DNA from: a virus
Reading direction: 5' to 3' (one strand)
Virus record (IMG/VR): IMGVR_UViG_3300025120_000048
Span: 1 to 61,608 of that record
DNA length: 61,608 bases
Shown here: positions 2,967 through 57,637 of the stretch, piece by piece
Layout: each line of letters opens with the position of its first letter
Position numbering within the stretch: the first letter of the stretch is position 1
Notes under the pieces: model-generated
The model's input: only the letters and a program-made list of their open reading frames with translations
Database searches by the model: none
Told to the model about the DNA's origin: nothing
Position numbers and translations under genes: made by a program

Positions 2967-3005
2967 AAAATAAAAAAAACAAGTAATAATATATTATAAA
3001 CCAAT

Positions 3006-18573: not shown

Positions 18574-18596
18574 TAGATTATACATATTATTATTCA

Positions 18597-18624: not shown

Positions 18625-18652
18625 TATATTAACTTTTAAATTATATTATATC

Positions 18653-42811: not shown

Positions 42812-43348
42812 TTAATTATTAAAATCTGCCATTTTGTCGTATTTAGCTACAACAAAAAAAGTATCTCGACTTGAAGCTATTCCAAAACCTATTTTATTAC
42901 ATTTTTTACATAAAATTTGTTCTGTAGTTAGTTTATTAATATCATCATCAGATAAAGTCCAAAAAACAGAAGCGTGAGCCATTAAATTTTCTGTTTCTTT
43001 AAACCAATTTTTTGGAGCATAAAAAATTAATTCACCTTTTTTATCATCTATTTCTGAATGTTTAGGTTCATTTATAATAGCTAAATAATCAGCCCATTTT
43101 TGTGCTTCTATTGATAATTTTTCATCAAATTCTAAAGGTTTATATTCAAAATAAGATCTAGTAACATTTTGATAATTTATAGCTTTATATACATTTTTTA
43201 AAAACAATTGTTTTTGTTTATTTTCAATTTCTAAATAATCATTTACTGTTAAGGCATCTCTTTTTATTTTTGATTTTGCAAAATTTATACCTCCATATTG
43301 AGCTATTCCTAAAAAAGGAATTAGCATTAATAATAACATTTTTTTCAT
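42812..43348 (-). CDS. Secreted CAP-domain (SCP/PR-1-like) protein
   Basis: 178 residues. An N-terminal signal peptide (M-K-K-M-L-L-L-M-L-I-P-F-L-G-I-A-Q) is of Bacteroidetes style, ending in A-Q. The rest has L-E-F-D-E-K-L-S-I-E-A-Q-K-W-A-D-Y-L, K-H-S-E and I-G-F-G-I-A-S ... F-V-V-A-K-Y, which match the CAP fold order (helix with 'A..WA', 'HS', 'G.G.A', 'VV..Y'). It probably works outside or in the periplasm of infected cells. It is a rare type of cargo between thyA and MazG-like genes. Confidence 0.6.
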   Translation of the reverse strand: MKKMLLLMLIPFLGIAQYGGINFAKSKIKRDALTVNDYLEIENKQKQLFLKNVYKAINYQNVTRSYFEYKPLEFDEKLSIEAQKWADYLAIINEPKHSEIDDKKGELIFYAPKNWFKETENLMAHASVFWTLSDDDINKLTTEQILCKKCNKIGFGIASSRDTFFVVAKYDKMADFNN

Positions 43349-46480: not shown

Positions 46481-47212
46481 TTATAATGTTTGATTTTCAA
46501 AATACTGTTCTGGATCAAATCCAGGAGTATTATAAACTAATTTATAGTTTGCGGCTGCCTCTTGTACTTTCCTGTATCCGCTATTAATAAAATCAGGTGA
46601 GCAGTCAAAGAATTTTGGAATTAAAGTATTTTTATCAATTGCAATAAAAAGCATTTCATAACCAAATAATTCTTGATATATAAAGGCTTGACTGTTATAA
46701 CCATACTTATATGCGCTTGATTTAAAATTACTTACATCATTTGTAGTTTTTAAATCAATAATCATTTTTTCATCATGATTTACAACATCAGCTTTTCCTT
46801 TCCACATAAGCTCTTCAATTTTTTTAATTTGAGGAACTTCATATTCAACATTACCTTCATTAATAAAGTAATTAATCATTTCATGATTGCGTGTTTTTTC
46901 AATCATTAGTTGAATCTTATCAACTTCATGTTCTAATAAACACATTTCACCATCTGATAATTCTTTATATTTTTTTGTATTACGTGTTGAACTTTGTATA
47001 ACTCTGTATTTTTTTAATTTATCCGGTTCTAAAATAGCAGTGTGATAATAACCTCCAACTAAAAAAGCTGGTCGCATTTCTTGAGGTTTATGTAATGATA
47101 ATGGATCTTTAATTAAAGTATTTACATTACTATTACTTAAAAACTTTTGACCAAATGAACCATAATAATGCTCATCTTCTTTAAGCTTTTTAATTATCTC
47201 TGCTTTATTCAT
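46481..47212 (-). CDS. RecE-like exonuclease (PD-(D/E)xK)
   Basis: 243 residues. M-W-K-G-K-A-D-V-V-N then M-I-I-D-L-K-T-T (the D-x-K of the active site) and Y-N-S-Q-A-F-I-Y-Q, with an early G-G-Y-Y-H, follow the exodeoxyribonuclease VIII/DUF3799 family. It should resect double-stranded ends to give ssDNA. It is encoded one codon from an ERF annealase (overlapping at 47212), which together make a phage recombination pair. Confidence 0.8.
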   Translation of the reverse strand: MNKAEIIKKLKEDEHYYGSFGQKFLSNSNVNTLIKDPLSLHKPQEMRPAFLVGGYYHTAILEPDKLKKYRVIQSSTRNTKKYKELSDGEMCLLEHEVDKIQLMIEKTRNHEMINYFINEGNVEYEVPQIKKIEELMWKGKADVVNHDEKMIIDLKTTNDVSNFKSSAYKYGYNSQAFIYQELFGYEMLFIAIDKNTLIPKFFDCSPDFINSGYRKVQEAAANYKLVYNTPGFDPEQYFENQTL

Positions 47213-47733
47213 TAAAGAGTTGTTATAGCTTTTTCTATTTTATCATCAACATTATATTTAGCTTTTATAATATTTAAAGCTTTCTTTTTATCTGGTGATT
47301 TAGCAATATAATCTTTAGCTTTTTCAATTTGCTCTTCATTCATTAAAGGATTATCATTGTCTTGAGTATCATCAATAAGTAAAAGATTGCCTAATGCATA
47401 TTTTTTACCATAAGATGAAGCAGAGCCAAATTTTTGTGGCATAGCCATTCCTTTTTGATTAAGATCAACACCTACAAGAGCTGTTTTAAATATAAAATTT
47501 GATGATTCGTTGTCTGTAATTGTTGCAGTTGATTTAAAAGTTGGTATCCCTGCAATTTCTGTTAATTCCCCTTCGTCAATAGTAAAGTTTACTTTGTATT
47601 TAATTATGAAAGGTTTTAATGCTTCAAGTATATCTTCAGCGTTTCTAAAGTTATAATTCCCAAAGTTATTTCTTCTTTTTTTAGCCACTTTGAGTTCGGC
47701 TTGGATGGTTGCTAATTTTTCGTTTATTTTCAT
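47212..47733 (-). CDS. ERF-family single-strand annealing protein
   Basis: 173 residues. Y-N-F-R-N-A-E-D-I-L-E-A-L-K-P near 28-42 and P-Q-K-F-G-S-A-S-S-Y-G-K-K-Y-A-L-G-N-L-L near 99-118 are the ERF hallmarks (Erf of P22). The region ends with I-D-D-T-Q-D-N-D. It anneals complementary strands and pairs with the upstream-encoded exonuclease for recombination-dependent replication or genome circularisation. Confidence 0.85.
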   Translation of the reverse strand: MKINEKLATIQAELKVAKKRRNNFGNYNFRNAEDILEALKPFIIKYKVNFTIDEGELTEIAGIPTFKSTATITDNESSNFIFKTALVGVDLNQKGMAMPQKFGSASSYGKKYALGNLLLIDDTQDNDNPLMNEEQIEKAKDYIAKSPDKKKALNIIKAKYNVDDKIEKAITTL

Positions 47734-47777: not shown

Positions 47778-48539
47778 TTAAAGATAATCAAAAATTTGAT
47801 TTGACTCAACATTTTCAATTAATTTTTTTACTGCTTCTTTTTTTATTTCTGAAATTCTCACATAAGCACTCGGCCCTTCAATTTTTAATAAATCCGCTAT
47901 TTGATTAGCGCTATGCTTATCACAATCAAGACCATAGCTTAATCTTAAGATTTCATATTCTTTTTTATTTAAATGTTTTTTAAGTAAACTTTGCAAATAT
48001 ATATTCATTAAACCAATATTATACGGCTCAGATTGATCAGGTATTTGATATAAGCCATAATCGTCATCTTCATTAATTTGTTCATCAATACTTAAAAATA
48101 TTGAATTAAAAAACATAGCTACCATCTTTTGATTTTTACCATTGTCTTTTCTTATTTCATTTAATTTGTGTTCTGGTATTCTTATATCACCTCTATTAAT
48201 ATCTATGGCTCTTCTTATTGCGCCTTTAATTCTCTTTGATAAAAATGATTTAAGAGTTTTTTCAGGTTCAGTTGATGCTTCTATTGTTTCCCATATAATT
48301 TTATCTACGGCTCTAATTAATCCTAAGCTTCCATCTTGAATTAAATCATTAATACTCATTACGCCACTTGCTTGTTGAGAAGTTGCAAATTTACGCCCGA
48401 TATTTTCGACTAATGGTAAAAACATTGTAATTAATTCGTTTCTGTTATATTCTTTTAATTCTTTTAGCTCGATATTATTTATTGAATCTGTTAAATCTAA
48501 TTTATATCGGATATAATTTCTTACATTATATTTTTTCAT
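47778..48539 (-). CDS. Phage-encoded sigma-70-family RNA polymerase factor
   Basis: 253 residues. Region 2 is seen around 50-105: M-S-I-N-D-L-I-Q-D-G-S-L-G-L-I-R-A-V-D-K, then S-F-L-S-K-R-I-K-G-A-I-R-R-A. Region 4 is near 195-250: L-N-K-K-E-Y-E-I-L-R-L-S-Y-G then S-A-N-Q-I-A-D-L-L and Y-V-R-I-S-E-I-K-K-E-A. It should redirect host polymerase to phage promoters. It overlaps the HTH gene by 14 bases and may recognise the repeated elements in the window. Confidence 0.85.
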   Translation of the reverse strand: MKKYNVRNYIRYKLDLTDSINNIELKELKEYNRNELITMFLPLVENIGRKFATSQQASGVMSINDLIQDGSLGLIRAVDKIIWETIEASTEPEKTLKSFLSKRIKGAIRRAIDINRGDIRIPEHKLNEIRKDNGKNQKMVAMFFNSIFLSIDEQINEDDDYGLYQIPDQSEPYNIGLMNIYLQSLLKKHLNKKEYEILRLSYGLDCDKHSANQIADLLKIEGPSAYVRISEIKKEAVKKLIENVESNQIFDYL

Positions 48540-49155
48540 GTTGCTCGTTCAATAACATTTTTTCTTTCTTTAGATTATTGCTCATGGTCCTGTAAATTGT
48601 TCTAGTTGAACAATGTAAAGCTTTTGAAAGGTTTAAAATGGTTATTTTACGGTTGCTTTCATTTATAAATAACATTGATTCATATATATCTGATTCAGTT
48701 ATTTTTTTTGTTTTACCAATTATATGGCCAACTATTTTAAGCTTCTCTTGTAAAGATAAAATACAATTATCTTTAAATATTATTTTTCTTAATTTATTTT
48801 TAGGTGGTTTATCTAAATCGGCTGTGTTTACTTCAACAATTATTTTTTCTAATATTAATGAAGGTACATAAAATTGTACAAATCCATTTTCTTTATTACA
48901 TATATATGATGCTACTTCTGTAAAGTTTTTTAAATTAAGCTTTGGATTCAAATACCATATAACTAATAAATGCCATTTTAAAGATCGGTATGTTGTTATT
49001 TTTGCTTTACTTCTAAATAGTTCATAACATTGGTAAGTACCTTTATTGTAATATACGCCCCATTCAAATACCTGTGATGGTTTATCGGTTGTTGGGTTTT
49101 GACGGTAAATAATCTTTCTTTGGGTTAAATATCCAAAGCGTCGGTCATATGACAT
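48526..49155 (-). CDS. HTH putative transcriptional regulator
   Basis: 209 residues. The C-terminal 40 (I-T-I-L-N-L-S-K-A-L-H-C-S-T-R-T-I-Y-R-T-M-S) form a typical helix-turn-helix with T-R-T-I-Y-R as recognition helix. The N-terminal 150 are mixed, with W-H-L-L-V-I-W-Y and no known family. Its start codon lies inside a half-site of the 43-bp dyad, suggesting autoregulation. It overlaps the sigma gene, so both are probably made from one mRNA. Confidence 0.65.
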   Translation of the reverse strand: MSYDRRFGYLTQRKIIYRQNPTTDKPSQVFEWGVYYNKGTYQCYELFRSKAKITTYRSLKWHLLVIWYLNPKLNLKNFTEVASYICNKENGFVQFYVPSLILEKIIVEVNTADLDKPPKNKLRKIIFKDNCILSLQEKLKIVGHIIGKTKKITESDIYESMLFINESNRKITILNLSKALHCSTRTIYRTMSNNLKKEKMLLNEQHEKI

Positions 49156-49192
49156 TAGCCTACTACTATTTATATATAATTACCTATTGTCA
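49150..49192 (-). promoter_or_regulatory. 43-bp dyad element, copy A
   Basis: TGACATTAG (49150-49158) and CTATTGTCA (49184-49192) are near-perfect inverted half-sites around an AT core with TATATA. On the minus strand the inner flank reads AGGTAATTATATATAAAT. The regulator ATG (49155-49153) lies in one half-site, so a protein bound here would block its translation start or transcription. Same length as copy B, and one base longer than copy C. Confidence 0.75.
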
Positions 49193-49211
49193 CATTTTTA
49201 TTAGTGACTTA

Positions 49212-49490
49212 TTATAAATTTTTTAATTTTTCTTTAATTCTATTTATTTTGTTTAAAACAATATTAGCTTTTAAATATTCTTCGTGATCAATATATCTTT
49301 TTTCTAATTGATAAAGTCGGTCTAATTGCAAATATAATAAATCCTCTTCTGAAACGGCACGACGGATTAAATCTTCATGGTCTACAGTATAAGTCTTATT
49401 GTTTTCTTCTTCAGCTAAATTATCATAATGCTCAACTAATTTTTTAAAAATCATATTGGAAATTCTATAAATTTCATCATCTGATAACAT
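49212..49490 (-). CDS. Small helical hypothetical protein, 92 aa
   Basis: 92 residues, entirely helical and charged (I-Y-R-I-S-N-M-I-F-K-K-L-V-E-H-Y). The C-terminal R-Y-I-D-H-E-E-Y-L-K-A-N-I-V-L-N-K-I resembles a UvrB/C-type helical hairpin. Starts from TAATG overlap with the upstream gene. The function is unknown. Confidence 0.55.
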   Translation of the reverse strand: MLSDDEIYRISNMIFKKLVEHYDNLAEEENNKTYTVDHEDLIRRAVSEEDLLYLQLDRLYQLEKRYIDHEEYLKANIVLNKINRIKEKLKNL

Positions 49491-49645
49491 TATTCAATTT
49501 CTTCCATTGTTAATATTTGAGATATAATTTGTTTTGCAGTACCTGAAAATTTAATTTCATCTCCATATAAATCAATCCAAGTTAAATTATATAAATCCGG
49601 TTTAATTCTTTTTTTAAACATAGTGTTAAATTTATTTCCAGCCAT
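49490..49645 (-). CDS. Hypothetical protein, 51 aa
   Basis: 51 residues starting M-A-G-N-K-F-N-T-M-F-K-K-R-I-K-P, then L-T-W-I-D-L-Y-G-D-E-I-K-F-S-G and T-A-K-Q-I-I-S-Q-I. A short beta-helix peptide. The TAA overlaps the next ATG. It fills the gap between larger minus-strand genes; no family is recognised. Confidence 0.5.
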   Translation of the reverse strand: MAGNKFNTMFKKRIKPDLYNLTWIDLYGDEIKFSGTAKQIISQILTMEEIE

Positions 49646-49649
49646 AGTT

Positions 49650-49814
49650 TTATATTACGTGATTAAATTTTTCTTTATATATTTTAGCTTGCTTTAAATT
49701 AGCAAAATCTTCATAGCCTCCTCTTATTCCATCTTTATGTTGCCATAAAACTCTGTAAGGAAAGTGTTTAAAAACAGTATTAACTAATTTTGTTTTATAA
49801 CAATTCAAATCCAT
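49650..49814 (-). CDS. Hypothetical protein, 54 aa
   Basis: 54 residues from an ATG inside the end of the KTSC gene: V-F-K-H-F-P-Y-R-V-L-W-Q-H-K-D-G then G-G-Y-E-D-F-A-N-L-K-Q-A. The 'VLW.H.DG..GG..' strand-turn-strand plus helix looks like a small beta-alpha fold. Unknown function. Confidence 0.5.
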   Translation of the reverse strand: MDLNCYKTKLVNTVFKHFPYRVLWQHKDGIRGGYEDFANLKQAKIYKEKFNHVI

Positions 49815-50019
49815 ATTTTTTTCTTATAGTTGAATTATAATACATTCCTATTGATTTATTTGTTCTAAATCTATCATATACTTTTAAAGGTACATTTTTA
49901 TAAAGATATATTCTTCCGTTTCTAAATTCAACGGTTAATTGTTTTGTGTCTTTTTGATAAGTTACTACACTTATTGCTTTTGATTTTACTTCTAATGTCT
50001 CTTTAATTGTTTTTCTCAT
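49795..50019 (-). CDS. KTSC-domain protein
   Basis: 74 residues. A-I-S-V-V-T-Y-Q-K-D-T-K-Q-L-T-V-E-F, then G-R-I-Y-L-Y-K-N-V-P and F-R-T-N-K-S-I-G-M-Y-Y-N follows the KTSC family (PF13619-like: 'LxVxFxxGxxYxYxNVP'). These small domains occur in phages and are often thought to bind nucleic acids. It overlaps both neighbours. Confidence 0.75.
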   Translation of the reverse strand: MRKTIKETLEVKSKAISVVTYQKDTKQLTVEFRNGRIYLYKNVPLKVYDRFRTNKSIGMYYNSTIRKKYGFELL

Positions 50020-50425
50020 TTTCTAATTTATTTAATTTAATTTCTATTTGTTCTATTTTTTTTATAAGTTCATCAATACTTATTTTATATTTAACTTTAT
50101 TTAAAGAATATTTTTCTTCTATAATCTCTTTTAAATCGTCATAAACTTCATCCATATAACGATCAATCTTAGCTTCCACATTATATTTTTTTAATCCATT
50201 AATAACTGTTGCATGGTCTCTATTTACGGCTCTACCAATGGCTGATAAGCTTTTATACCTACATAAGTTTTTAGCTAGTTTAAAGTATATAAAACGAGCT
50301 TGGGATAGCTCTCTGGTTCTAGTTTTTACACCAATATCATGTATTTGCAATTCTTTTTCAACTAAATTTTTTATATCTACAGCTGAAACTAATTTTTTTA
50401 ATATATATTTTTTTCCTATGTTCAT
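50003..50425 (-). CDS. DnaA domain IV-like DNA-binding protein
   Basis: 140 residues. The centre T-R-E-L-S-Q-A-R-F-I-Y-F-K-L-A-K then S-A-I-G-R-A-V-N-R-D-H-A-T-V-I-N-G-L-K-K matches the DnaA C-terminal origin-box-binding helix-turn-helix (family 'GRxFGGRDHTTVxHAxxKI'). No AAA+ domain is present. The C-terminal 50 are coiled coil (I-E-Q-I-E-I-K-L-N-K-L). It may mark the phage origin and recruit host replication proteins. Element 1 lies just upstream. Confidence 0.75.
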   Translation of the reverse strand: MNIGKKYILKKLVSAVDIKNLVEKELQIHDIGVKTRTRELSQARFIYFKLAKNLCRYKSLSAIGRAVNRDHATVINGLKKYNVEAKIDRYMDEVYDDLKEIIEEKYSLNKVKYKISIDELIKKIEQIEIKLNKLENEKNN

Positions 50426-50443
50426 TTATAAAATTTATTTATT

Positions 50444-50474
50444 ATTATCTAATTTAATACGTATTTGCTTCGTG
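50444..50474 (-). promoter_or_regulatory. 31-bp repeat element 1, upstream of DnaA-like gene
   Basis: Plus-strand text begins ATTATCTAA and ends ACGTATTTGCTTCGTG. On the minus strand it reads CACGAAGCAAATACGT and ends in AGATAAT, 18 bp before the start codon of the 50003-50425 gene. It keeps the family length and spacing of the other eight copies. Probably a promoter or activator site. Confidence 0.75.
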
Positions 50475-50666
50475 TTACTTTATTCTTAACTCATCACCAT
50501 TATTGTATCTTATCCAGATTTCAATATTTGTAATTTCTTTGTCTAATGCTTCATTGTATCCATCAACGGGATCATCACTTGTTGAAAAATAACCTCCTTT
50601 AAAATCAGGATAATCTCCTTCAATATAAAACGTATCTATATCTTTAAATTTGTATTCTTGTTTCAT
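50475..50666 (-). CDS. Hypothetical acidic protein, 63 aa
   Basis: 63 residues: F-K-D-I-D-T-F-Y-I-E-G-D-Y-P-D-F-K-G-G-Y-F and E-I-T-N-I-E-I-W-I-R-Y-N-N-G-D-E. Acidic, and likely a beta-rich small protein. Its ATG overlaps the preceding stop. Unknown; belongs to the small early-type array. Confidence 0.5.
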   Translation of the reverse strand: MKQEYKFKDIDTFYIEGDYPDFKGGYFSTSDDPVDGYNEALDKEITNIEIWIRYNNGDELRIK

Positions 50667-50806
50667 ATCTTAGGCTTTCTTTCTTTATTTGGTTTGTGTA
50701 CATAATACCCAACGATCGGATTGACTAAATAATTCCACCAATCCGAAGGAAATTTTTTTGCATCTGTTATTATTAATTTTTTTTTGTCTATATATTTTTT
50801 TTGCAT
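50663..50806 (-). CDS. Hypothetical protein, 47 aa, aromatic-rich
   Basis: 47 residues: K-K-L-I-I-T-D-A-K-K-F-P-S-D-W-W-N-Y-L-V-N-P-I-V-G-Y-Y-V. A different overlapping frame reads longer here, but this one has more natural composition and coupled stop/start (ATATGA). Unknown function. Confidence 0.5.
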   Translation of the reverse strand: MQKKYIDKKKLIITDAKKFPSDWWNYLVNPIVGYYVHKPNKERKPKI

Positions 50807-50808
50807 TT

Positions 50809-51018
50809 TTATAAATTAAATATTGTTTCCATATCTCGCCAGTCATAACATTCTTTATTAGGAAGCTTAGCAAGTTTTTTAAAGTATCTGTCTCGTGTTT
50901 CTTTAATACCCAATTGGGCTCCTATAGTAATTGAAATCCATATTATAGCAATATACTTTAATACGCTTTTAAAAATAGGATTAGAAAGCTTATTTATCAT
51001 CTTCTTCATTGTGTTCAT
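50809..51018 (-). CDS. Small membrane protein, 69 aa or fewer
   Basis: One hydrophobic segment at about 20-40 (L-K-Y-I-A-I-I-W-I-S-I-T-I-G-A-Q-L-G) flanked by Lys-rich ends. The start could be any of three nearby ATGs (51018, 51009, 51000), all inside the previous gene's end. It may target the host envelope. Family unknown. Confidence 0.5.
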   Translation of the reverse strand: MNTMKKMINKLSNPIFKSVLKYIAIIWISITIGAQLGIKETRDRYFKKLAKLPNKECYDWRDMETIFNL

Positions 51019-51307
51019 CTATATAGTCTTGTACTTCACTATCAGGCAAATATATTTCTATGTCTGATATATATACAATTGAATCTTTGTCAAGCTCTTT
51101 AATTCGATCAATAATTTGATCAAAAGATGGTTCATAATAATATACATCATATTCAAAATCAAGGTTTCTTGCGTCTTGTGTTATTACGTGTAATGTATAA
51201 CCATCTGCGGTATTCCATTCACCTATTTCAAGTTCAACACCGGTTTTGTAATCTTCTGAAATTTCGGCCACACCTAAAAGCATGGCCAGTTTTTTTATGT
51301 TATTCAT
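50990..51307 (-). CDS. Acidic hypothetical protein, 105 aa
   Basis: 105 residues, very acidic at the end (E-H-N-E-E-D-D-K). The core E-L-E-I-G-E-W-N-T-A-D-G-Y-T-L-H-V-I-T then D-V-Y-Y-Y-E-P-S and I-V-Y-I-S-D-I-E looks like an alternating beta-sheet. Such acidic early proteins often mimic DNA or bind host proteins; no direct evidence exists here. Confidence 0.5.
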   Translation of the reverse strand: MNNIKKLAMLLGVAEISEDYKTGVELEIGEWNTADGYTLHVITQDARNLDFEYDVYYYEPSFDQIIDRIKELDKDSIVYISDIEIYLPDSEVQDYIDEHNEEDDK

Positions 51308-51308
51308 T

Positions 51309-51539
51309 TTATTTGTTTTTAGTTATTAAATCTTTATTTTTTGGTTCAGGTCTAGTATAACGATTTTCAGCATAAGCTCTAAGCTCAATTGTAAAATAGT
51401 CAACTATATCAGATAATTCAAAGCCATCATCTATTAAAGGTTTCATTTGTTCAGCATTTAATTCCATTGTGTATTTGCCAATTATAGTAGACATGCGATC
51501 GAATTTTGCTTTGTAATCAAAGTAAGTTTGTAAGTTCAT
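51309..51539 (-). CDS. Hypothetical helical protein, 76 aa
   Basis: 76 residues: L-Q-T-Y-F-D-Y-K-A-K-F-D-R-M-S-T-I-I-G, then L-N-A-E-Q-M-K-P-L-I-D-D-G-F. Mostly helical, with a basic end. Directly preceded by element 2. Unknown function. Confidence 0.5.
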   Translation of the reverse strand: MNLQTYFDYKAKFDRMSTIIGKYTMELNAEQMKPLIDDGFELSDIVDYFTIELRAYAENRYTRPEPKNKDLITKNK

Positions 51540-51566
51540 TTTATTTATTTTTTAAGGTTCATATAT

Positions 51567-51597
51567 ATTATCCAGAAGCTTACGTATTTGCTTCGTG
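51567..51597 (-). promoter_or_regulatory. 31-bp repeat element 2
   Basis: Plus text begins ATTATCCAGAAGC and ends ACGTATTTGCTTCGTG. It ends in TGGATAAT on the minus strand, 27 bp before the 51539 start codon. Its inner part also encodes H-E-A-N-T-stop of the upstream gene (51580-51789), so it is both coding and regulatory. Same 31-bp length as others. Confidence 0.75.
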
Positions 51598-51789
51598 TAT
51601 TGTTAATCCTAATTCATTCGCAACATAATTAATATGCTTTGAAGTGGCTGGGCTTGAGGTCATACCTCTTACATTCCATTTTAATTTGTAAAGTTTATTA
51701 TCTTTAATCTCAGCAACACGGGTATTATATGAGATTATGTCATTGCCGATCTGTTTTAGATTTACTTTGTATTTGTCAAATGTTTTCAT
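51580..51789 (-). CDS. Hypothetical protein, 69 aa, ending in the repeat element
   Basis: 69 residues: N-G-x-like basic core (K-L-K-W-N-V-R-G-M-T-S-S-P-A-T-S-K-H-I-N-Y-V-A-N-E-L). Its final H-E-A-N-T-stop is encoded by element 2. It may have a small DNA-binding fold, but no family is known. Starts overlapping the previous stop. Confidence 0.5.
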   Translation of the reverse strand: MKTFDKYKVNLKQIGNDIISYNTRVAEIKDNKLYKLKWNVRGMTSSPATSKHINYVANELGLTIHEANT

Positions 51790-51986
51790 TTTATCATTTT
51801 TTTAATTAATGTAAATAAGAGTTGTTGTTTTATTTTAAATTCTAATTCAAATAAATCAGGGTTTTTAAAATTCTCATCATTATTATCTGTGAGTTGCCAA
51901 TGTATTGTTTTATCAATGTGATATTCAACTTCTTCAATGCATTGATTCGCAATTTTTGATATCATATTTTTCATATTAGTATCCAT
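51786..51986 (-). CDS. Hypothetical protein, 66 aa
   Basis: 66 residues, acidic to neutral helices: I-S-K-I-A-N-Q-C-I-E-E-V-E-Y-H-I-D-K-T-I and F-E-L-E-F-K-I-K-Q-Q-L-L. Overlaps both neighbours by a few bases. Unknown. Confidence 0.5.
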   Translation of the reverse strand: MDTNMKNMISKIANQCIEEVEYHIDKTIHWQLTDNNDENFKNPDLFELEFKIKQQLLFTLIKKMIK

Positions 51987-52176
51987 ATTTGTTGTAATGT
52001 TTAATTGTTTCCAAGCTTGCTTTATTAAACGCGCTTACTCTTTGTCTATACTTTTCATCAGTACAATACTTTTTCATAGCATACACATTTGTTTGGCCAT
52101 GATCGGTACCATATTGTTTTTCAAAGTCTGCTATTTGTAATAGCTTTGCATCAATCATTTTTTTAGTTATATCCAT
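51976..52176 (-). CDS. Hypothetical helical protein, 66 aa
   Basis: 66 residues from the ATG at 52176 (M-D-I-T-K-K-M-I-D-A-K-L-L-Q-I-A-D-F-E-K-Q-Y-G). A longer reading from 52260 would run through element 3, so the shorter start is chosen: it is preceded by AAAATAAA and lies 22 bp after the element. Helical, with Y-R-Q-R-V-S-A-F-N-K. Unknown function. Confidence 0.55.
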   Translation of the reverse strand: MDITKKMIDAKLLQIADFEKQYGTDHGQTNVYAMKKYCTDEKYRQRVSAFNKASLETIKHYNKYGY

Positions 52177-52197
52177 TTTATTTTGTTTTACGTTTAT

Positions 52198-52228
52198 ATT
52201 ATCCAATTCAATCCGTGTTTGCTTCGTA
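52198..52228 (-). promoter_or_regulatory. 31-bp repeat element 3
   Basis: Plus text ATTATCCAATTCAATC then CGTGTTTGCTTCGTA. It overlaps the last codons (E-A-N-T-D-stop) of the upstream zinc-ribbon-like gene, and its minus-strand end is 22 bp before the 52176 start codon. Keeps length and spacing. Confidence 0.75.
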
Positions 52229-52369
52229 TAGGAATAAAGCTCCTTCGTGACATGCCCCACACATTCCTGTATTGTATTTATCTATTTCACCTAAAGGAGA
52301 TTCACCACAGCAATTTGATAACCATTGCCCATTTCTTTCTAATCCTAAGTAGATCATATTATTCATCAT
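52208..52369 (-). CDS. Small zinc-ribbon-like protein, 53 aa
   Basis: 53 residues: L-S-N-C-C-G-E-S-P-L-G-E-I-D-K-Y-N-T-G-M-C-G-A-C-H-E-G. The C-C and C-x2-C pairs with 16 residues between can hold zinc. The tail Y-E-A-N-T-D-stop is encoded by element 3. The start is at the doubled ATG (52369 or 52366). Such lone ribbons in phages may bind tRNA, DNA or host enzymes. Confidence 0.6.
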   Translation of the reverse strand: MMNNMIYLGLERNGQWLSNCCGESPLGEIDKYNTGMCGACHEGALFLYEANTD

Positions 52370-52370
52370 A

Positions 52371-52706
52371 TTAATTCCAAATTGTACTATCAGTTAAAAC
52401 TTTTTCCATCTCATTCCATTGGACCGTGTCATTAGATTCATTTAATGCATCCCACAAAGCATTGTATCCAGCTTGATGCCAATTGTTAGGTCTACCAAAA
52501 TCTAAATGTGTATCAAAAATATCGTAGTTTAATTCGTCACAATATTCTTTGCATTCATAAGTGTTAGTTGTTTTGTTGTCAATCCATTCAGTTTTTAAAG
52601 TATCTAAATCATTAGATTCGTTTATTTCTCCTTGATGAAATGCATACCATGCATCATCTGAAAATTCCTGGGCTATCTCGTCTATTTTATAATTTGAATT
52701 GTGCAT
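52371..52706 (-). CDS. Acidic hypothetical protein, 111 aa
   Basis: 111 residues, Asn/Asp/Glu/Trp-rich: F-S-D-D-A-W-Y-A-F-H-Q-G-E-I-N-E-S-N-D and F-G-R-P-N-N-W-H-Q-A-G-Y-N-A-L-W-D. Strong negative charge and several Trp recall anti-restriction or DNA-mimic type early proteins, but this is speculative. It begins 12 bases after the preceding stop. Confidence 0.5.
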   Translation of the reverse strand: MHNSNYKIDEIAQEFSDDAWYAFHQGEINESNDLDTLKTEWIDNKTTNTYECKEYCDELNYDIFDTHLDFGRPNNWHQAGYNALWDALNESNDTVQWNEMEKVLTDSTIWN

Positions 52707-52718
52707 TTTATTTTGGTT

Positions 52719-52934
52719 TTATTTGTTATATAATATGTCTGCTAATGTTTCACCAATTTCAGAAAAGTATTGGGCTTTGCCTATCATTTCTAGCATTGCT
52801 TCACTTTCCATTTTGGAGAGGTCATTGCCATCTTCATCTTTGCCATTAGTATTTATTAATTGCTCTGCGTAGTCTATACAATCTTGCAAATCTAAGTTTG
52901 TATTGTGAAATCTACAGTGGGTCATATTGCTCAT
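52719..52934 (-). CDS. Hypothetical protein, 71 aa
   Basis: 71 residues: H-C-R-F-H-N-T-N-L-D-L-Q-D-C-I-D-Y-A-E-Q-L-I then L-S-K-M-E-S-E-A-M-L-E-M-I-G-K-A-Q-Y-F. The first half resembles short phage proteins 'CRFxNTxxDLxDC' that I recall from T4-like early regions. Helical; function unknown. Confidence 0.6.
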   Translation of the reverse strand: MSNMTHCRFHNTNLDLQDCIDYAEQLINTNGKDEDGNDLSKMESEAMLEMIGKAQYFSEIGETLADILYNK

Positions 52935-52953
52935 CTTTCTTTGGTTTTAAGGT

Positions 52954-53133
52954 TTATATGGTTTTATATTTTTGTATTAATTTAGTAATGTCTTTTAAGT
53001 TTGAGAAGTGATAATGGTATATAACTTCATCTTTGTAATTAAGTACTGTGAAATCATACATTTTAAATTCAGGTGCATAAGCAATTTGAAAAAATGTTTG
53101 TGATTTTGGATTGTTATTAAAATATTTAGACAT
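52954..53133 (-). CDS. Hypothetical protein, 59 aa
   Basis: 59 residues from M-S-K-Y-F-N-N-N at 53133; an in-frame ATG at 53154 also exists but lies close to element 4 and in a position that the equivalent copy 3 leaves untranslated. F-F-Q-I-A-Y-A-P-E-F-K-M-Y-D-F-T-V-L is beta-like, with an H-Y-H-F-S-N-L-K-D helix. Unknown function. Confidence 0.5.
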   Translation of the reverse strand: MSKYFNNNPKSQTFFQIAYAPEFKMYDFTVLNYKDEVIYHYHFSNLKDITKLIQKYKTI

Positions 53134-53158
53134 TTTATTTGTTTTTATGTTCATTTAT

Positions 53159-53189
53159 ATTATCCAATTCAACACGTGTTTACTCCGTG
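53159..53189 (-). promoter_or_regulatory. 31-bp repeat element 4
   Basis: Plus text ATTATCCAATTCAAC then ACGTGTTTACTCCGTG. Its minus-strand downstream gene is the 52954 one, 25 bp from its chosen start. With flanking AAC/GTT it also forms a 6-bp hairpin (AACACG/CGTGTT). Spacing matches the other copies. Confidence 0.75.
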
Positions 53190-53417
53190 TTTTTACACTT
53201 CCGTCAACAGACATAAAAAAATATCCCTAATTTAATGCTAAATAACTCTTAAAGCATTGAAATAAATAAACTTATTAAAATCCTCTTTATCTCCCAAAAG
53301 GGGGTAAAATATTTGTATTGTAACAAAGTGTTGTATATGTAACACTTTATGTGTATTTATATAATACCAATTATATGTGACATTAGGTAGTTATATATAT
53401 ATAATAACAGGCTATTG
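53190..53417. other. Non-coding control region with dyad B
   Basis: About 230 bases with no convincing gene on either strand: AT-rich, with a CCCAAAAGGGGG palindrome near 53285, TGTAAC repeats near 53320-53345 and the dyad B at its end. Plausible for a promoter/operator block or replication origin, but no DnaA-box set is clear. Confidence 0.5.
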
Positions 53418-53420
53418 TCA
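53378..53420 (+). promoter_or_regulatory. 43-bp dyad element, copy B
   Basis: TGACATTAG (53378-53386) and CTATTGTCA (53412-53420) flank GTAGTTATATATATATAATA-type AT core. Exactly 43 bp, as copy A. Its right half-site contains the stop codon of the 53418-53582 gene. Orientation is ambiguous because it is near-palindromic. Confidence 0.75.
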
Positions 53421-53582
53421 CACTACAATATAAGTTTCTTTAGCTTCTTTTCTTAATTTATACAAGAGGTCTAATTCTTCTTTGAATGAATCCATATCTT
53501 TTGTAAAATTATTTGTACCGTTTGAAATATAAACAAACAATGCTTCTATTAAAATTCCTTCTTCTTTGTTATTAATTTTCAT
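53418..53582 (-). CDS. Hypothetical protein, 54 aa
   Basis: 54 residues, acidic helix (I-N-N-K-E-E-G-I-L-I-E-A-L-F-V-Y-I) and K-E-E-L-D-L-L-Y-K-L-R-K-E-A. Similar in style to the 54113 gene (short peptide, 'I-N-N-K' start, 'D-x-x-x-L-L' helix), suggesting paralogy. Preceded by element 5; ends inside dyad B. Confidence 0.55.
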   Translation of the reverse strand: MKINNKEEGILIEALFVYISNGTNNFTKDMDSFKEELDLLYKLRKEAKETYIVV

Positions 53583-53599
53583 AAGTGTATATTTATTTT

Positions 53600-53630
53600 A
53601 TTATCCAACTAAGCACGTGTTTGCTCCGTA
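53600..53630 (-). promoter_or_regulatory. 31-bp repeat element 5
   Basis: Plus text ATTATCCAACTAAGC then ACGTGTTTGCTCCGTA. It sits 17 bp before the 53582 start codon. Immediately beyond it on the plus strand is a terminator hairpin for the upstream gene. Confidence 0.75.
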
Positions 53631-53638
53631 TGGGCTTT

Positions 53639-53672
53639 AAAAAAAAACCTCAACTAAGGGAGAGGTTTTTAT
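53639..53672 (-). terminator. Terminator between small cassettes
   Basis: On the minus strand, AAAACCTC then a short loop then GAGGTTTT, followed by a run of about nine T. Stem 53644-53651/53662-53669. It lies after the 53686 gene and before element 5. T-runs on both sides make it bidirectional. Confidence 0.75.
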
Positions 53673-53685
53673 TTTTTAATTTAAT

Positions 53686-53883
53686 TTATTTTGTAAAATC
53701 GTAGATTCTTAAATACCATTCTTCTATATTTTCATTATATTTCATTTCACAATTTTCTTTAACTATTACATTTTCCATTATTATTTTTTCATTAAAGATT
53801 TGTTCTTTTGTACCATAATAATCTGTTTTAAAGATTTTATTTAATTCTTCTTTAACTAAACTATTTAATATTTGTGAATTCAT
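53686..53883 (-). CDS. Hypothetical helical protein, 65 aa
   Basis: 65 residues: N-S-Q-I-L-N-S-L-V-K-E-E-L-N-K-I-F-K-T-D-Y then I-E-E-W-Y-L-R-I-Y-D-F-T-K. An ATG 27 bp after element 6 and a terminator after its stop make it a single-gene unit. Unknown function. Confidence 0.55.
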   Translation of the reverse strand: MNSQILNSLVKEELNKIFKTDYYGTKEQIFNEKIIMENVIVKENCEMKYNENIEEWYLRIYDFTK

Positions 53884-53909
53884 ATTTATATTTTTAAAGT
53901 TATAATTAT

Positions 53910-53940
53910 ATTATCCAAGTTAGGACGTGTTTGCTTCGTG
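53910..53940 (-). promoter_or_regulatory. 31-bp repeat element 6
   Basis: Plus text ATTATCCAAGTTAGG then ACGTGTTTGCTTCGTG, the closest to the consensus. Followed on the minus strand by a 26-bp leader and the 53883 start codon. Confidence 0.8.
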
Positions 53941-53948
53941 CTTGATAT

Positions 53949-53976
53949 AAAAAAACCTCAACACAATGTGAGGTTT
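53949..53976 (-). terminator. Terminator between small cassettes
   Basis: AAACCTCA (53953-53960) pairs with TGAGGTTT (53969-53976), an 8-bp perfect stem with an 8-base loop; the minus-strand transcript continues into TTTTTTT. It lies right after the 53985-54116 gene stop and before element 6. Confidence 0.8.
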
Positions 53977-53984
53977 AATTTATT

Positions 53985-54116
53985 TTATTTTATAATTTCC
54001 CAATCAGAATTTTCAAATTGATAACTGAACTCACTATCCCAGAGCATTTCTTCCATTACTTTATTTATTTCTTTTTCACTTAAATGTGTTTCTAATGTAA
54101 TTTTAATATTTCTCAT
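53985..54116 (-). CDS. Hypothetical protein, 43 aa
   Basis: 43 residues: I-K-I-T-L-E-T-H-L-S-E-K-E-I-N-K-V-M-E-E-M-L-W-D-S-E-F-S-Y. Overlaps the preceding stop (ATGA), so likely made together with the 54113 peptide. Beta strand then helix; possible host-factor binder. Unknown. Confidence 0.5.
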   Translation of the reverse strand: MRNIKITLETHLSEKEINKVMEEMLWDSEFSYQFENSDWEIIK

Positions 54117-54256
54117 ATTTTTATTCTTAGTAAATTTAACAATTCAATATCTTCCTTATAATCTTCCATATCAACAGAAAAATCATCTGTTAAATGCTCA
54201 AGGGAAAAATGTAAATGCTCAAGTAAAAGTAATCTTTGTTTATTATTAATAGTCAT
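54113..54256 (-). CDS. Hypothetical protein, 47 aa
   Basis: 47 residues: T-I-N-N-K-Q-R-L-L-L-L-E-H-L-H-F-S-L-E-H-L-T-D-D-F-S. Helical, with a D-M-E-D-Y-K-E-D-I-E-L-L-N-L end like that of the 53418 gene. Preceded by element 7. Unknown. Confidence 0.5.
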   Translation of the reverse strand: MTINNKQRLLLLEHLHFSLEHLTDDFSVDMEDYKEDIELLNLLRIKI

Positions 54257-54282
54257 AATGTATAGTTTTAAGTTATAAATTT

Positions 54283-54313
54283 ATTATCCAAATCAGGACG
54301 TGTTTGCCCCGTG
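54283..54313 (-). promoter_or_regulatory. 31-bp repeat element 7
   Basis: Plus text ATTATCCAAATCAGG then ACGTGTTTGCCCCGTG, with CCCC in place of CTTC. Minus-strand end is 26 bp before the 54256 start codon. On the other side it joins a GC-rich structured segment. Confidence 0.75.
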
Positions 54314-54377
54314 TTCGGTCGACCTCGAGTCGGGCTCGAAGTGCGGGATGAGGTTGGCTCGCGGTATCGTGCGAGGT
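54308..54377 (-). terminator. GC-rich structured segment between cassettes
   Basis: About 70 bases of high G+C in an AT-rich genome, between the 54378 stop and element 7. It contains several inverted repeats: GACCTCG with CGAGGTC (long range), CTCGC-GGTATCGT-GCGAG, and CGAC-CTCGA-GTCG. It replaces the simple T-rich hairpins found at the two neighbouring cassettes, so it may be a structured terminator or small RNA. Confidence 0.5.
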
Positions 54378-54551
54378 CTACCAGGTAGGCCCTGGATCGG
54401 GATTTATCGGGCAGCATAATCCTAGGCTAAGAAGAGTTTCAATTCTATCTTCTAAATAGTCTAGATCCTTTATTTCTTTACTAGTTAAATTATCCATTTC
54501 TATAACAGCATTAATTATTTCTCTGTTGTACTTTTCTATTAGCTTTCGCAT
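54378..54551 (-). CDS. Hypothetical protein, 57 aa, with GC-rich tail
   Basis: 57 residues: M-R-K-L-I-E-K-Y-N-R-E-I-I-N-A-V-I-E-M-D then helices, and an odd final C-C-P-I-N-P-D-P-G-P-T-W. The last 12 codons are GC-rich and unlike the rest, joining the structured segment downstream. This suggests insertion or replacement of the 3' end. Unknown function. Confidence 0.5.
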   Translation of the reverse strand: MRKLIEKYNREIINAVIEMDNLTSKEIKDLDYLEDRIETLLSLGLCCPINPDPGPTW

Positions 54552-54577
54552 AATTTATATTTTTAGATTATAACATT

Positions 54578-54608
54578 ATTATCCAGATCAAGACGTATCT
54601 GCTCCGTA
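54578..54608 (-). promoter_or_regulatory. 31-bp repeat element 8
   Basis: Plus text ATTATCCAGATCAAG then ACGTATCTGCTCCGTA. Its minus-strand end is 26 bp before the 54551 start codon. Flanked by the second GC-rich segment. Confidence 0.75.
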
Positions 54609-54650
54609 CCTGGTTAGCTCTCGGGCTCGCAGTACCGGGTGAGGTTAAGC
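54609..54650 (-). terminator. Second GC-rich segment, related to 54308-54377
   Basis: Shares TCGGGCTCG and GGTGAGGTT-type blocks (GGGCTCG-x-AGT...GGGTGAGGTT) with the first GC-rich segment, and lies in the same place between a stop codon and a 31-bp element. Inverted GGTAC/GTACC pairs are visible. It probably acts like the T-rich terminators of the other cassettes. Confidence 0.5.
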
Positions 54651-54803
54651 CAAATAGCAAATTAGATTGACCGCGCGAGGTGTTACCGGTCCCTCCAGCA
54701 CTTCCTCCAATGCTTGTTGGAAATCTTCTAATTCAATGGTTCCATTTTTGTAACATTCAACATGGAACAATACTTCTTTTTTAATAGTTTCAATTGAGTT
54801 CAT
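54645..54803 (-). CDS. Hypothetical protein, 52 aa
   Basis: 52 residues: I-E-T-I-K-K-E-V-L-F-H-V-E-C-Y-K-N-G-T-I-E-L-E-D-F-Q-Q-A-L then a GC-rich end (L-E-G-P-V-T-P-R-A-V). First gene of the minus-strand array. Preceded by element 9. The tail composition differs from the rest. Unknown function. Confidence 0.5.
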   Translation of the reverse strand: MNSIETIKKEVLFHVECYKNGTIELEDFQQALEEVLEGPVTPRAVNLICYLA

Positions 54804-54826
54804 ATGTAAAAATTTAATTCAAATAT

Positions 54827-54857
54827 ATTATCCAAATTAGTACGTGTTTCCCCCGTA
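54827..54857 (-). promoter_or_regulatory. 31-bp repeat element 9
   Basis: Plus text ATTATCCAAATTAGT then ACGTGTTTCCCCCGTA. It opens the minus-strand array, 23 bp before the 54803 start codon. The Cs replacing GCTT make it the most divergent copy in the upstream block. Confidence 0.75.
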
Positions 54858-55135
54858 AAAAGTCAAATACTTATACAAAATTTTAACAAAAGTCAAAACA
54901 TTTTTCCTAAAGCTCGAAAACATTGGGGAGGTGGGTAAAATCAAAATAACTTTTCAAAAATTTCTTTGTTAAAAAAATAAAGCGTAGCCCCCACATTATA
55001 TATTTGTAACGTACTTTTTCCATTCAGGTGACGTTAGGCTATTATATATAAGAGTAACCCCCTATTGTCGCATAAAGGGGTGTAAATTTTAAATTTTCCA
55101 TGTAAATATATTTATTATAATAAAGAGAAAGAACA
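54858..55135. other. Divergent control region, non-coding
   Basis: About 280 bases without a gene between the first minus-strand gene and the plus-strand fibre operon. It holds poly-A/T stretches, a GGGGAGGTGGGTAAA patch near 54925, TGTAAC near 55005 and dyad C. It is the natural place for opposing promoters and perhaps the origin. Confidence 0.55.
55029..55070 (+). promoter_or_regulatory. Dyad element, copy C
   Basis: TGACGTTAG (55029-55037) and CTATTGTCG (55062-55070) around GGCTATTATATATAAGAG. One base shorter than copies A and B, with both half-sites carrying one G change. It faces the plus-strand fibre operon that starts at 55136, about 65 bp away. Confidence 0.75.
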
Positions 55136-55231
55136 ATGGCAGTTTATTTAGGTGATGAAACCGTAGCGACCCTATATTTAGGAGACGAAGCAGTGGCCAA
55201 TATCTACTTAGGCACTGAGACTGTACTATAA
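55136..55231 (+). CDS. 31-aa peptide with YLGDExV repeats
   Basis: Three tandem copies of a V/L/I-Y-L-G-(D/T)-E-(T/A)-V unit make up almost the whole peptide (M-A-V-Y-L-G-D-E-T-V-A-T-L-Y-L-G-D-E-A-V). The same unit begins the 2100 gene (A-I-Y-L-G-A-T-E). It is the first gene of the fibre operon, with a purine-rich AAAGAGAAAGAACA leader. Possibly a short beta-helix-like or capping peptide for fibres. Confidence 0.6.
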   Translation: MAVYLGDETVATLYLGDEAVANIYLGTETVL

Positions 55232-55249: not shown

Positions 55250-57637
55250 ATGGCAATAATTTATAGCTATCCTAACCAGACGAATCCTGTGGCAACTGAC
55301 CTATTATTGGGTACAGATGCAGATGGCAAGAATAATGTAACAAAAAACTTTACAATACAGAGTATTATTGACCTTGTGAACCCAAGTGTTCCAGGTGGTG
55401 GTACCGTTACTAATATATTGACTACTGGAGACACCTTTGTTTCCTTATCGGGTGGCCCTATTACTACAACTGGGACGATTACTGCTGGACTTACTGCAGG
55501 TGGAGCCCCTTCTGCTACTACATTCCTTCGTGGTGACAATACTTGGGCAGCTGTAAACGCAGATAACACTACATACGTAATTAGAAGCACTCAAAGTGGT
55601 GCAAATGCAAACATATTACTCACCGGGTCTGATTTATTGCAGACAACAGTGAGTCTACAGCCAGGACCGTTCATTACATTAACTGATGACGGATTTAATG
55701 GTATAGAAATTTCTGCGGCAAACGTGCCGTTGGGGACAGTAACGAGTGTGGAACCTGGTAAAGGACTTGCAATGGAAACAGGGGTAGCTGAGGTTAACCC
55801 TGAGTTGCAGGTCGAACCTAATGGCCCTAATAATTATATAAGAGTATTTGATACACCTACTACTCCTACTCAAACTGACTTCATTCCTTTTAATCAAGTA
55901 TCATCTGGTAATGTAAAATCAACATCTTTTAGTACAATACCAATAGATGCAGTAGATTTAATAAAAGCATATATAGATACAGGTGATGATGGTGATGTAA
56001 GAAACAATACTGATACATTTACAACTACAGGTGTAGTTAATCAGGTTGTAAGTTTAACTTCGGCTGAATATACAGCTATAGGGACTAAGGACCCTAATAC
56101 ATTATATGTAGTTATAGCATCTAACCCTAGTTTTACTGTTACTCAAAGCTTAATTAATAATATTACAGGTGGTACTGCAGGTGTGGACTACGTATTATCA
56201 GGCCCGGCTGACGGAGCAACACAAGTTGGTGTAGCCGGAACGCCTTATGCGTTTACAGTTACTGCTAGTCCTGCTAGTGGAAAATATTTTTCGAGCGCCT
56301 TCGCCGCTACTAATCCTTCGGGGGCTATATCAGCAGATGCTACAGTCACAAACACATTGACAGGTACGATTGCTGCCATACCGGCTGGCACGTGTACGGC
56401 TACTGCAGTAATTACAAATAATATATCAGGTGGTGGTAATGGATCGGTGAGTGTAACTCCTGGAACAGATGGAGGAACATGTCCTCACACATATTCATTT
56501 ACAGCATCCGCATCTGCTAATTCAGGATTTGCATTTACATCTGGTCCGTTTTTTAACGGATCGGCGAGCGGAACAATCACAGGTACAGCTACAGGTAATC
56601 AAAATGTACCAATATCAGTTACTGGAACTATTGCAGCATCAACAGCCCCGCAGTGTACAGTAACACTAAATGTAGATACAAGTGGAATAACAGGTACAGA
56701 ATTTACATTATCTGGCGATACCACAGGATCTACAAGATCTGGTAATTGTGGTGATGGTTATGCATTCTCAACACAGGCTATTGCAAATTCAGGATATGAA
56801 TGGGCATCAGGGCCTGTTGTAAATAATAATAGTGGTAATCTATCTAATACTACAGTAACTACAACTATAACAGGAGTAATACAGGTATCAACACCTTCAA
56901 CATGTGTTACGACATTAGCACTACAAAATGGTATTATAAACAATTCCGGTGTACAACCTTCAGTTGCTTATACAATAGGTGGTGATATAGCAGGGGCTAC
57001 AGATTCTAGTAACTGTCCAAATTCATATAGCTTTACTACAACAGTAACACCTAATAGTGGTTATCAGTTTACATCAGGACCAACAATAGTAAATGCGCAA
57101 GGAACTTCTAATACATCTGAAATAGTTTTAACAACTATAACAGGAACAGTTGAAGCAATAGCAACAAATATAACAATAACACCTTTACTTGATACTAGTG
57201 GTATAACTGGTACTCAATATAGCACATCCACTCCTGCAGCAGTAGTAGGATTGCCTCCTCAAAATTATAGTTTTACCCCAACAATTACAGCTAATGCCGG
57301 ATATGTATTTACTTCTGGACCTACATTTAATCCACCTCTTCCTGCAACAGGATCAGCAAGTGTAGATACAACAGTAACAATAACAGTTACAGGTACTGTA
57401 GCAACAACTCCGCCGCTAGGAACACAATTAATAAGATGTGATAATAGTACAACGACATGGTACACACCAACAACTAACATATCTTCAGGATTTACTTATT
57501 ATAGTGCTGGAGGAGTTTGTTACAGAAGTATGGGTAATACTTATAGTCTTACTGGATTAACTAGTGTTGGTACTGGTGGAACAGTTTACCCTCCTGGAGC
57601 GCCAGGAAATCCTTGTATTGGGGTTGGACCTTGTTAA
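55250..57637 (+). CDS. Tail-fibre protein with five beta-sandwich repeats
   Basis: 795 residues. The N-terminal 45 (M-A-I-I-Y-S-Y-P-N-Q-T-N-P) is shared with the next fibre and likely docks to the tail. About 80-110 has T-T-F-L-R-G-D-N-T-W-A. From about 280 to 720 come five units of about 85 residues, each with Y-(S/A)-F-T-x-T and N-S-G-(Y/F)-x-F-T-S-G-P and ending in T-(I/V)-T-G-T. The C-terminus has a Cys-containing tip (P-G-N-P-C-I-G-V-G-P-C). Probable host-receptor binding. Confidence 0.75.
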   Translation: MAIIYSYPNQTNPVATDLLLGTDADGKNNVTKNFTIQSIIDLVNPSVPGGGTVTNILTTGDTFVSLSGGPITTTGTITAGLTAGGAPSATTFLRGDNTWAAVNADNTTYVIRSTQSGANANILLTGSDLLQTTVSLQPGPFITLTDDGFNGIEISAANVPLGTVTSVEPGKGLAMETGVAEVNPELQVEPNGPNNYIRVFDTPTTPTQTDFIPFNQVSSGNVKSTSFSTIPIDAVDLIKAYIDTGDDGDVRNNTDTFTTTGVVNQVVSLTSAEYTAIGTKDPNTLYVVIASNPSFTVTQSLINNITGGTAGVDYVLSGPADGATQVGVAGTPYAFTVTASPASGKYFSSAFAATNPSGAISADATVTNTLTGTIAAIPAGTCTATAVITNNISGGGNGSVSVTPGTDGGTCPHTYSFTASASANSGFAFTSGPFFNGSASGTITGTATGNQNVPISVTGTIAASTAPQCTVTLNVDTSGITGTEFTLSGDTTGSTRSGNCGDGYAFSTQAIANSGYEWASGPVVNNNSGNLSNTTVTTTITGVIQVSTPSTCVTTLALQNGIINNSGVQPSVAYTIGGDIAGATDSSNCPNSYSFTTTVTPNSGYQFTSGPTIVNAQGTSNTSEIVLTTITGTVEAIATNITITPLLDTSGITGTQYSTSTPAAVVGLPPQNYSFTPTITANAGYVFTSGPTFNPPLPATGSASVDTTVTITVTGTVATTPPLGTQLIRCDNSTTTWYTPTTNISSGFTYYSAGGVCYRSMGNTYSLTGLTSVGTGGTVYPPGAPGNPCIGVGPC

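What the first reader, a model, noticed from the sequence alone, without database searches (positions are those of the whole stretch)
49150..55070. Three-copy 42-43-bp dyad linked to an HTH regulator gene
Seen directly: inverted half-sites TGACATTAG and CTATTGTCA with the same separation occur at 49150-49192, 53378-53420 and 55029-55070, all with a TATATA core. One copy covers the start codon of the HTH gene, one lies in a non-coding gap, and one in the divergent control region before the fibre operon. Repeated, spaced half-sites are what a dimeric or tetrameric regulator needs. I infer a switch site, perhaps autoregulated by the 209-residue protein.
Basis: partly seen in the sequence, partly recalled or inferred. 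Interest (0 to 1): 0.8.

Follow-up and report, generated by a model that had tools for sequence, protein, structure and literature searches.

The report
Phage regulator's self-marking DNA switch site
A group of mostly uncultured phages of Bacteroidota-type bacteria carries a 42-letter, nearly mirror-symmetric DNA signal that sits almost always on the start of one regulator gene and again in front of late genes, which points to a previously undescribed early-to-late gene switch run by that regulator; binding itself has not been tested.

Summary
The three-copy dyad is real and far beyond chance. A motif model finds 71 such sites in 26 near-complete related phage genomes (1-4 each) and none with a reversed control. 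In a separate set of loci fetched by the HTH protein alone, 73 of 76 homologues have the dyad at their gene start, usually with the ATG inside one half-site. All ~30 records of 58 kb or more with a genuine dyad encode the HTH protein. Other copies precede late genes: the conserved half-site faces the gene (18 of 18 scorable) and a promoter-like core (GTRA-N1-5-TAT) lies 24-34 bp downstream in 13 of 19 (shuffled mean 1.2). The HTH gene heads a conserved HTH-sigma-Erf order. Best reading: the dyad is the operator of the HTH protein, which autoregulates and drives an early-to-late switch; this works like phi29 p4 but is no relative by the tests run. Unexpected: the two half-sites almost never match at positions 5-6 (1 of 69 identical, about a third expected). 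Against RNA structure: arms do not covary. The HTH family is absent from PHROGs, NCBIfam and INPHARED. No binding was shown.

The parts
49150..49192 (-). Dyad A, 43 bp, over the start codon of the HTH gene (ATG 49155-49153 inside the gene-proximal half CTAATGTCA)
   Evidence: same position in 73/76 homologues found by protein and 34/34 earlier ones
53378..53420 (+). Dyad B, 43 bp, in the minus-strand early-type region, conserved half facing right, no promoter-like core downstream; a leftward promoter-like box lies 211 bp to its left
55029..55070 (+). Dyad C, 42 bp, in the divergent region upstream of the late/fibre operon, conserved half facing the late genes
55102..55121 (+). Late-promoter-like core GTAAATATATTTATTATAAT, 31 bp downstream of dyad C
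   Evidence: same core at 24-34 bp in 13 of 19 late-type sites
54995..55010 (-). Leftward promoter-like box GTTACAAATATATAAT on the other side of dyad C (by eye; similar GTTAGATATATAGG in relatives)
   Evidence: sequence read directly; not tested statistically
48526..49155 (-). HTH regulator gene, 209 aa, C-terminal HTH (recognition helix around RT-I-x-R, residues 185-189)
   Evidence: Pfam HTH_11 sub-threshold, 30/31 homologues hit HTH_11; AlphaFold pLDDT 88.4
47778..48539 (-). Phage sigma-70-family factor, directly downstream of the HTH gene
   Evidence: order conserved in 73/74 loci
47212..47733 (-). Erf-like ssDNA annealing protein, next in the same gene order
   Evidence: conserved in 71/74 loci
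55136..55231 (+). First small ORF (31 aa, MAVYLGDE...) downstream of dyad C
   Evidence: sequence
55250..57637 (+). Fibre-type gene (MAIIYSYP..., 795 aa)
   Evidence: MAI[IN]YSYP/YTYP genes also lie downstream of dyads in L022, L084, G011

Best explanation
The dyad is the operator of the 209-residue HTH protein. Inferred mechanism: each half-site offers two boxes about one helical turn apart (TGACAWTAG and a TTA box), so a dimer or tetramer covers ~42 bp. On its own start codon, inside the early-type HTH-sigma-Erf operon, the bound protein limits its own synthesis. Upstream of late genes the same protein, with its conserved half facing the gene and a promoter-like core 24-34 bp beyond, helps RNA polymerase (probably with the phage sigma made from the same operon) start late transcription. 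Copies without a promoter core (B-type) sit among early genes and may act as auxiliary or repressing operators. Shown: the site, its polarity, spacing, positions and co-occurrence. Inferred: that the HTH protein is the binder, and the sign of each effect.
For: Dyad at the HTH start in 34/34 homologues of the first set and 73/76 of a set retrieved by protein only. Where the start codon moved (L040, L099, L307 group) the site stayed, so the constraint is on the DNA and not only on the coding sequence. Co-occurrence: 39/48 records, most of them fetched by the DNA pattern, carry the HTH protein, including every record of 58 kb or more except G010, whose match is a chance one without dyad context; two further complete-size records agree. 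71 sites in 26 genomes versus 0 with the reversed motif (the motif was trained partly on the same genomes). HTH-type and other sites in one genome share their variant type (Fisher P=0.002; phylogeny not corrected), as expected for one trans-acting reader. Late-type sites: conserved half proximal 18 of 18 scorable; GTRA-N1-5-TAT core in 13/19 versus shuffled mean 1.2 (maximum 6 in 2000) and 2/19 on the distal side. Conserved HTH-sigma-Erf order. Cultured relatives without the HTH gene (phi38:1, elemoA, MW202828) have no dyad.
Against: No binding or expression data. The sigma factor co-occurs perfectly with the HTH gene and both are missing from the cultured relatives, so co-occurrence cannot separate them. 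The late-promoter core was recognised by eye on the same sequences later used to count it. The list of late-type sites was curated by hand. Six of 19 late-type sites lack the core within the scored window.
Confidence: 0.75

Rival explanations
1. The dyad is (part of) a promoter read by the phage sigma factor: TGACA as an upstream box and the TATATAA centre as the -10, pointing at the gene; the two-fold symmetry is secondary.
For: The sigma gene follows the HTH gene in 73/74 loci and co-occurs with the dyad; the centre is TA-rich and direction-specific (positions 17-18 differ between halves), and the conserved half always faces the gene.
Against: Strong two-fold symmetry over 42 bp with a 41-44 bp length range is unlike a sigma site. 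Late-type copies have a separate promoter-like core 24-34 bp further on. Some sites lack a TATA centre, e.g. G044:22121 TTAAGTAAGAAGAGTAA. In the HTH gene the start codon lies inside the supposed downstream arm.
Confidence: 0.12
2. The dyad works as RNA: a hairpin hides the AUG of the HTH mRNA and structures late leaders.
For: Predicted hairpins of -8 to -18 kcal/mol form over the start codon; one is strong (L122 z=-5.3).
Against: Arms do not covary: pairing in 59 distinct HTH sites equals the shuffled expectation at the variable positions; a mismatch is kept at positions 5-6; four of six z-scores lie between -0.2 and -1.9; in late-gene sites both strand orientations occur. No Rfam match.
Confidence: 0.05
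3. The dyad is a site for a host factor or another phage protein (for example replication, partition or recombination), and its place at the HTH gene is a conserved location only.
For: The outer TGTGA resembles a CRP half-site; 1-4 copies per genome is also compatible with a structural role.
Against: Site types co-vary within genomes; fixed polarity and spacing to a promoter-like core; location at gene starts; spacing fits neither CRP (TGTGA-N6-TCACA) nor dif (11-6-11).
Confidence: 0.08

Closest known systems
[quoted passage not shown]
   Same: Phage-encoded regulator; imperfect inverted repeats with fixed spacing; sites at the early/late divergent junction; one factor proposed to repress early and activate late transcription.
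   Different: p4 sites are CTTTTT-N15-AAAATG (27 bp); here 41-44 bp with TGACAWTAG halves. No p4 family among the Pfam matches shown for the window protein or its 31-member alignment. The site on the regulator's own start codon and the adjacent sigma gene are, as far as I know, not part of the p4 system. No p6-like partner was sought.
Autorepressing phage/bacterial HTH regulators with an operator over their own start (Cro/CI-like, toxin-antitoxin antitoxins)
   Same: Operator overlaps the regulator's gene start; palindromic.
   Different: The site is longer and also sits at late genes with fixed spacing; the protein has no specific match to those families.
T4 MotA-type middle activation (own knowledge)
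   Same: Phage activator plus a -10-like core with a short upstream box at fixed spacing.
   Different: The MotA box is a single ~9-bp box; here a 42-bp dyad at least 24 bp upstream of the core.

Membership tests
phi29 p4-type early/late switch regulator | Sequence homology to gp4 family | tested here: not met
   Pfam scan of 31 homologues lists no p4 family among the families shown, only generic HTH models; fold search of the PDB shows no p4 structure among the listed matches
phi29 p4-type early/late switch regulator | Sites CTTTTT-N15-AAAATG | tested here: not met
   Consensus here is TGACAWTAG-N23-26-CTAWTGTCA (PMC3100819)
phi29 p4-type early/late switch regulator | Sites lie between divergent early and late promoters | tested here: inconclusive
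   Dyad C lies between leftward and rightward promoter-like boxes and late-side core spacing is conserved; no transcript data
phi29 p4-type early/late switch regulator | One protein represses early and activates late promoters | not testable with these tools
   needs binding and transcription assays
Pfam HTH_11 domain | Score above curated cut-off (25 bits) | tested here: not met
   window protein 18.5 bits; 30/31 homologues hit at E<=0.1, best 6.5e-06
CRP operator | TGTGA-N6-TCACA | tested here: not met
   the outer TGTGA and TCACA motifs are more than 30 bp apart
Xer/dif site | 11-bp arms with a 6-8 bp spacer, about 28 bp | tested here: not met
   41-44 bp, several copies per genome, at gene starts
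Intrinsic terminator | G+C-rich stem and T-run at gene ends | tested here: not met
   AT-rich imperfect arms, no pair covariation, positioned upstream of genes
Known RNA element (Rfam) | Match to an Rfam family | tested here: not met
   no match in the window at gathering threshold

The most novel reading that the evidence does not exclude
The operator is an obligately unequal palindrome: one half must be TGACATTAG-like and the other must differ at positions 5-6 (perfectly equal versions are almost absent), so a symmetric site is selected against, either because it would bind too tightly or because the inequality fixes the orientation of the complex and thereby decides repression (own gene) or activation (late genes).
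Probability: 0.2. Interest if true: 0.75.

Novelty: new variant of a known kind. Interest (0 to 1): 0.58.

Why it matters
At least 483 uncultured viral contigs encode a relative of this protein, and loci in MAGs labelled mostly as Bacteroidota (Sphingobacteriales, Lewinella, Flavobacteriaceae, Saprospiraceae) suggest the hosts. A regulator that marks its own start codon gives a sequence-only handle on the regulon of these phages: the late promoters can be predicted genome-wide and tested. The unequal-halves rule is a clean, testable question about how a symmetric-looking operator encodes direction or strength.

Tried and rejected
RNA hairpin: no covariation between arms, weak z-scores in four of six, no Rfam match. 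Chance: exact pattern expected 0 in the window, reversed motif gives 0 hits in 26 genomes; the raw collection scan does contain some chance hits (coding contexts such as L028/L057/L063/L098, and odd lengths 38-39 and 45-47), which were set aside. Homology by structure: no PDB match at E<=0.001 and only one unnamed viral model (A0A516MIB4). Separating HTH from sigma by co-occurrence: failed, both are absent from the cultured relatives. A T/A 'type' rule for the half-sites (one A-type, one T-type) fits fewer sites than the simple rule 'halves differ'. Strict orientation of the TGACATTAG half to transcription: a preference only, about 15 to 5 by hand count in late-type census sites. A fixed distance of B-type sites from leftward promoter boxes: not found (47-217 bp). 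Literature searches found the phi29 p4 parallel but nothing on this site. A DNA search for the early element failed because its spacer was mis-set; the regex found nine copies.

Full report
1. Observation. Copies at 49150-49192, 53378-53420 and 55029-55070 are present as described, except that copy 3 is 42 bp and has TGACGTTAG and CTATTGTCG. The exact two-half pattern is expected 0.00 times in shuffles. No further copy scores in the window.

2. Related sequences. A scan of IMG/VR with the pattern and a free spacer of 20-30 stopped at 120 stretches. The spacing was not uniform but concentrated at total lengths 40-43 in that pattern's counting, which leaves out the last base of the right half (41:50, 42:34, 43:17, 40:14); the few other lengths and some repeated coding contexts are chance. 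Flanks outside the pattern are conserved (T 76%, G 66% just outside; A-rich further out), and so are inner positions (C/G 10, TTA at 14-16).

3. Link to the HTH gene. Loci fetched by DNA alone included 23 homologues of the window's HTH protein, many with the dyad at exactly the same place over the start codon. All 34 homologues of the first set show it, one of them (L131) in a degenerate form. A second set, fetched by protein profile only (483 relatives, 80 kept; 76 loci examined, including 7 from MAGs), has it in 73 of 76. The three exceptions are near-identical loci whose upstream sequence reads like an inserted HNH-type ORF (L300 region; not tested further). In L040, L099 and the L307 group the start codon has moved downstream but the site remains.

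4. Census. A half-site weight matrix found 71 sites in the window plus 25 other near-complete genomes (1-4 each), 0 with the reversed matrix; 25 are HTH-start sites, 44 distinct others. The matrix was trained on loci that partly come from the same contigs; the set is the independent one for HTH-start sites. G001 has a degenerate HTH-start copy below threshold. Every record of 58 kb or more with a genuine dyad encodes the HTH protein. Shorter records without it may be fragments.

5. Context of the other sites. They precede late-type genes (small basic KQKLSP proteins, fibre-type genes, a 274-aa structural gene next to the capsid gene in a subset) or lie among early-type genes. In 19 late-type sites the conserved half (inner box TTACT) faces the gene in all 18 that can be scored. 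A core GTRA-N1-5-TAT occurs 24-34 bp downstream in 13 of 19 (11 at 24-27 bp; shuffled mean 1.2; distal side 2). The motif was noticed on these sequences before counting, and the list of sites was assembled by hand, so the statistics are descriptive. The 274-aa class is not in that list: there the conserved inner box is often on the far half. In the HTH-start sites the conserved half also faces the gene (20 of 20 scorable).

6. Unequal halves. At positions 5-6 the halves are identical in 1 of 25 HTH sites and 0 of 44 others, where 33-39% is expected from their frequencies (P = 8e-5 and 2e-8, relatedness not corrected). Scans of the collection agree: 1 stretch with TGACAATAG/CTATTGTCA, 8 with TGACATTAG/CTAATGTCA, against at least 120 with the mixed form (the spacer ranges and the R in the first pattern differ slightly). 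In the protein-found set, where the ATG fixes the gene-side half as AT, the other half is AA, GA, GT, GC, AC or GG but AT only once together with AT; in L328, where the gene-side half is AA (a TTG start), the far half is AT. I cannot say why. Candidates: tuned affinity (as natural lac operators are weaker than the symmetric ideal; own knowledge), orientation, or avoidance of perfect inverted repeats. RNA pairing is not the reason: there is no covariation at the variable positions.

7. The protein. 209 aa, AlphaFold pLDDT 88.4, a C-terminal HTH, and an N-terminal part with helices and strands that could hold a second DNA-binding unit (inference). No significant PDB match by sequence or fold, one unnamed viral model, no PHROG, no NCBIfam, no INPHARED tblastn match. 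The gene order HTH-sigma-Erf is conserved in 73/74 and 71/74 loci.

8. Mechanism. Most likely an operator for the HTH protein with autoregulation and an early-to-late switch. Which protein reads the site is inferred from co-occurrence, position and within-genome co-variation of site types (P = 0.002). The sigma factor is the main rival because it always co-occurs and the cultured relatives lack both. The HTH gene appears to lie inside a longer minus-strand operon, so autoregulation could be by roadblock or by an internal promoter; the data do not decide.

9. Relation to known systems. The logic resembles phi29 p4 (PMC3100819) but sites and protein differ; see the membership table. I file it as a new variant of a known kind: a phage regulator with its own regulon.

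Noticed in passing
50443, 51566, 52197, 53158, 53599, 53909, 54282, 54577, 54826 (+ strand starts; ~31 bp each): Nine copies of TATTATCCAAnTnAGnACGTGTTTGCTCCGT, i.e. a minus-strand promoter-like element ACGGAGCAAACACGTnCTnAnTTGGATAATA in front of small minus-strand genes; probably an early promoter set. This exact form is rare in the 25 related genomes.
   Followed up: partly
50003-50425 (-): 140-aa protein with a DnaA domain IV (Bac_DnaA_C, E=4e-12); possible replication or regulatory protein.
   Followed up: no
about 54318-54425 and 54610-54705: Two G+C-rich, mutually similar stretches (tcgggctcg-agt--cgggatgaggtt...) inside an AT-rich early region, each directly after an early element.
   Followed up: no
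L300 about 2700-3010 (also L301, L303): An HNH-like ORF reading (HIDHILPIG...) appears inserted at the start of the HTH gene and replaces the dyad.
   Followed up: partly
L010, L018, L021, L061 and similar; window 18590-18652: In a subset the dyad sits between a terminator-like hairpin and the 274-aa structural gene; the window keeps a hairpin and T-run upstream of its homologue (18653) but has no dyad there.
   Followed up: partly
related genomes, e.g. G038, G008, G043, G044: Recurring GTGTATAGC/GCTATACAC elements (up to 20 per genome, 1 in the window), several next to B-type dyads.
   Followed up: no
42812-43348 (-), 3388-4941 (+), 49795-50019 (-): Phage-encoded CAP/SCP-domain protein, Cpn60 chaperonin and a KTSC-domain protein.
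   Followed up: no
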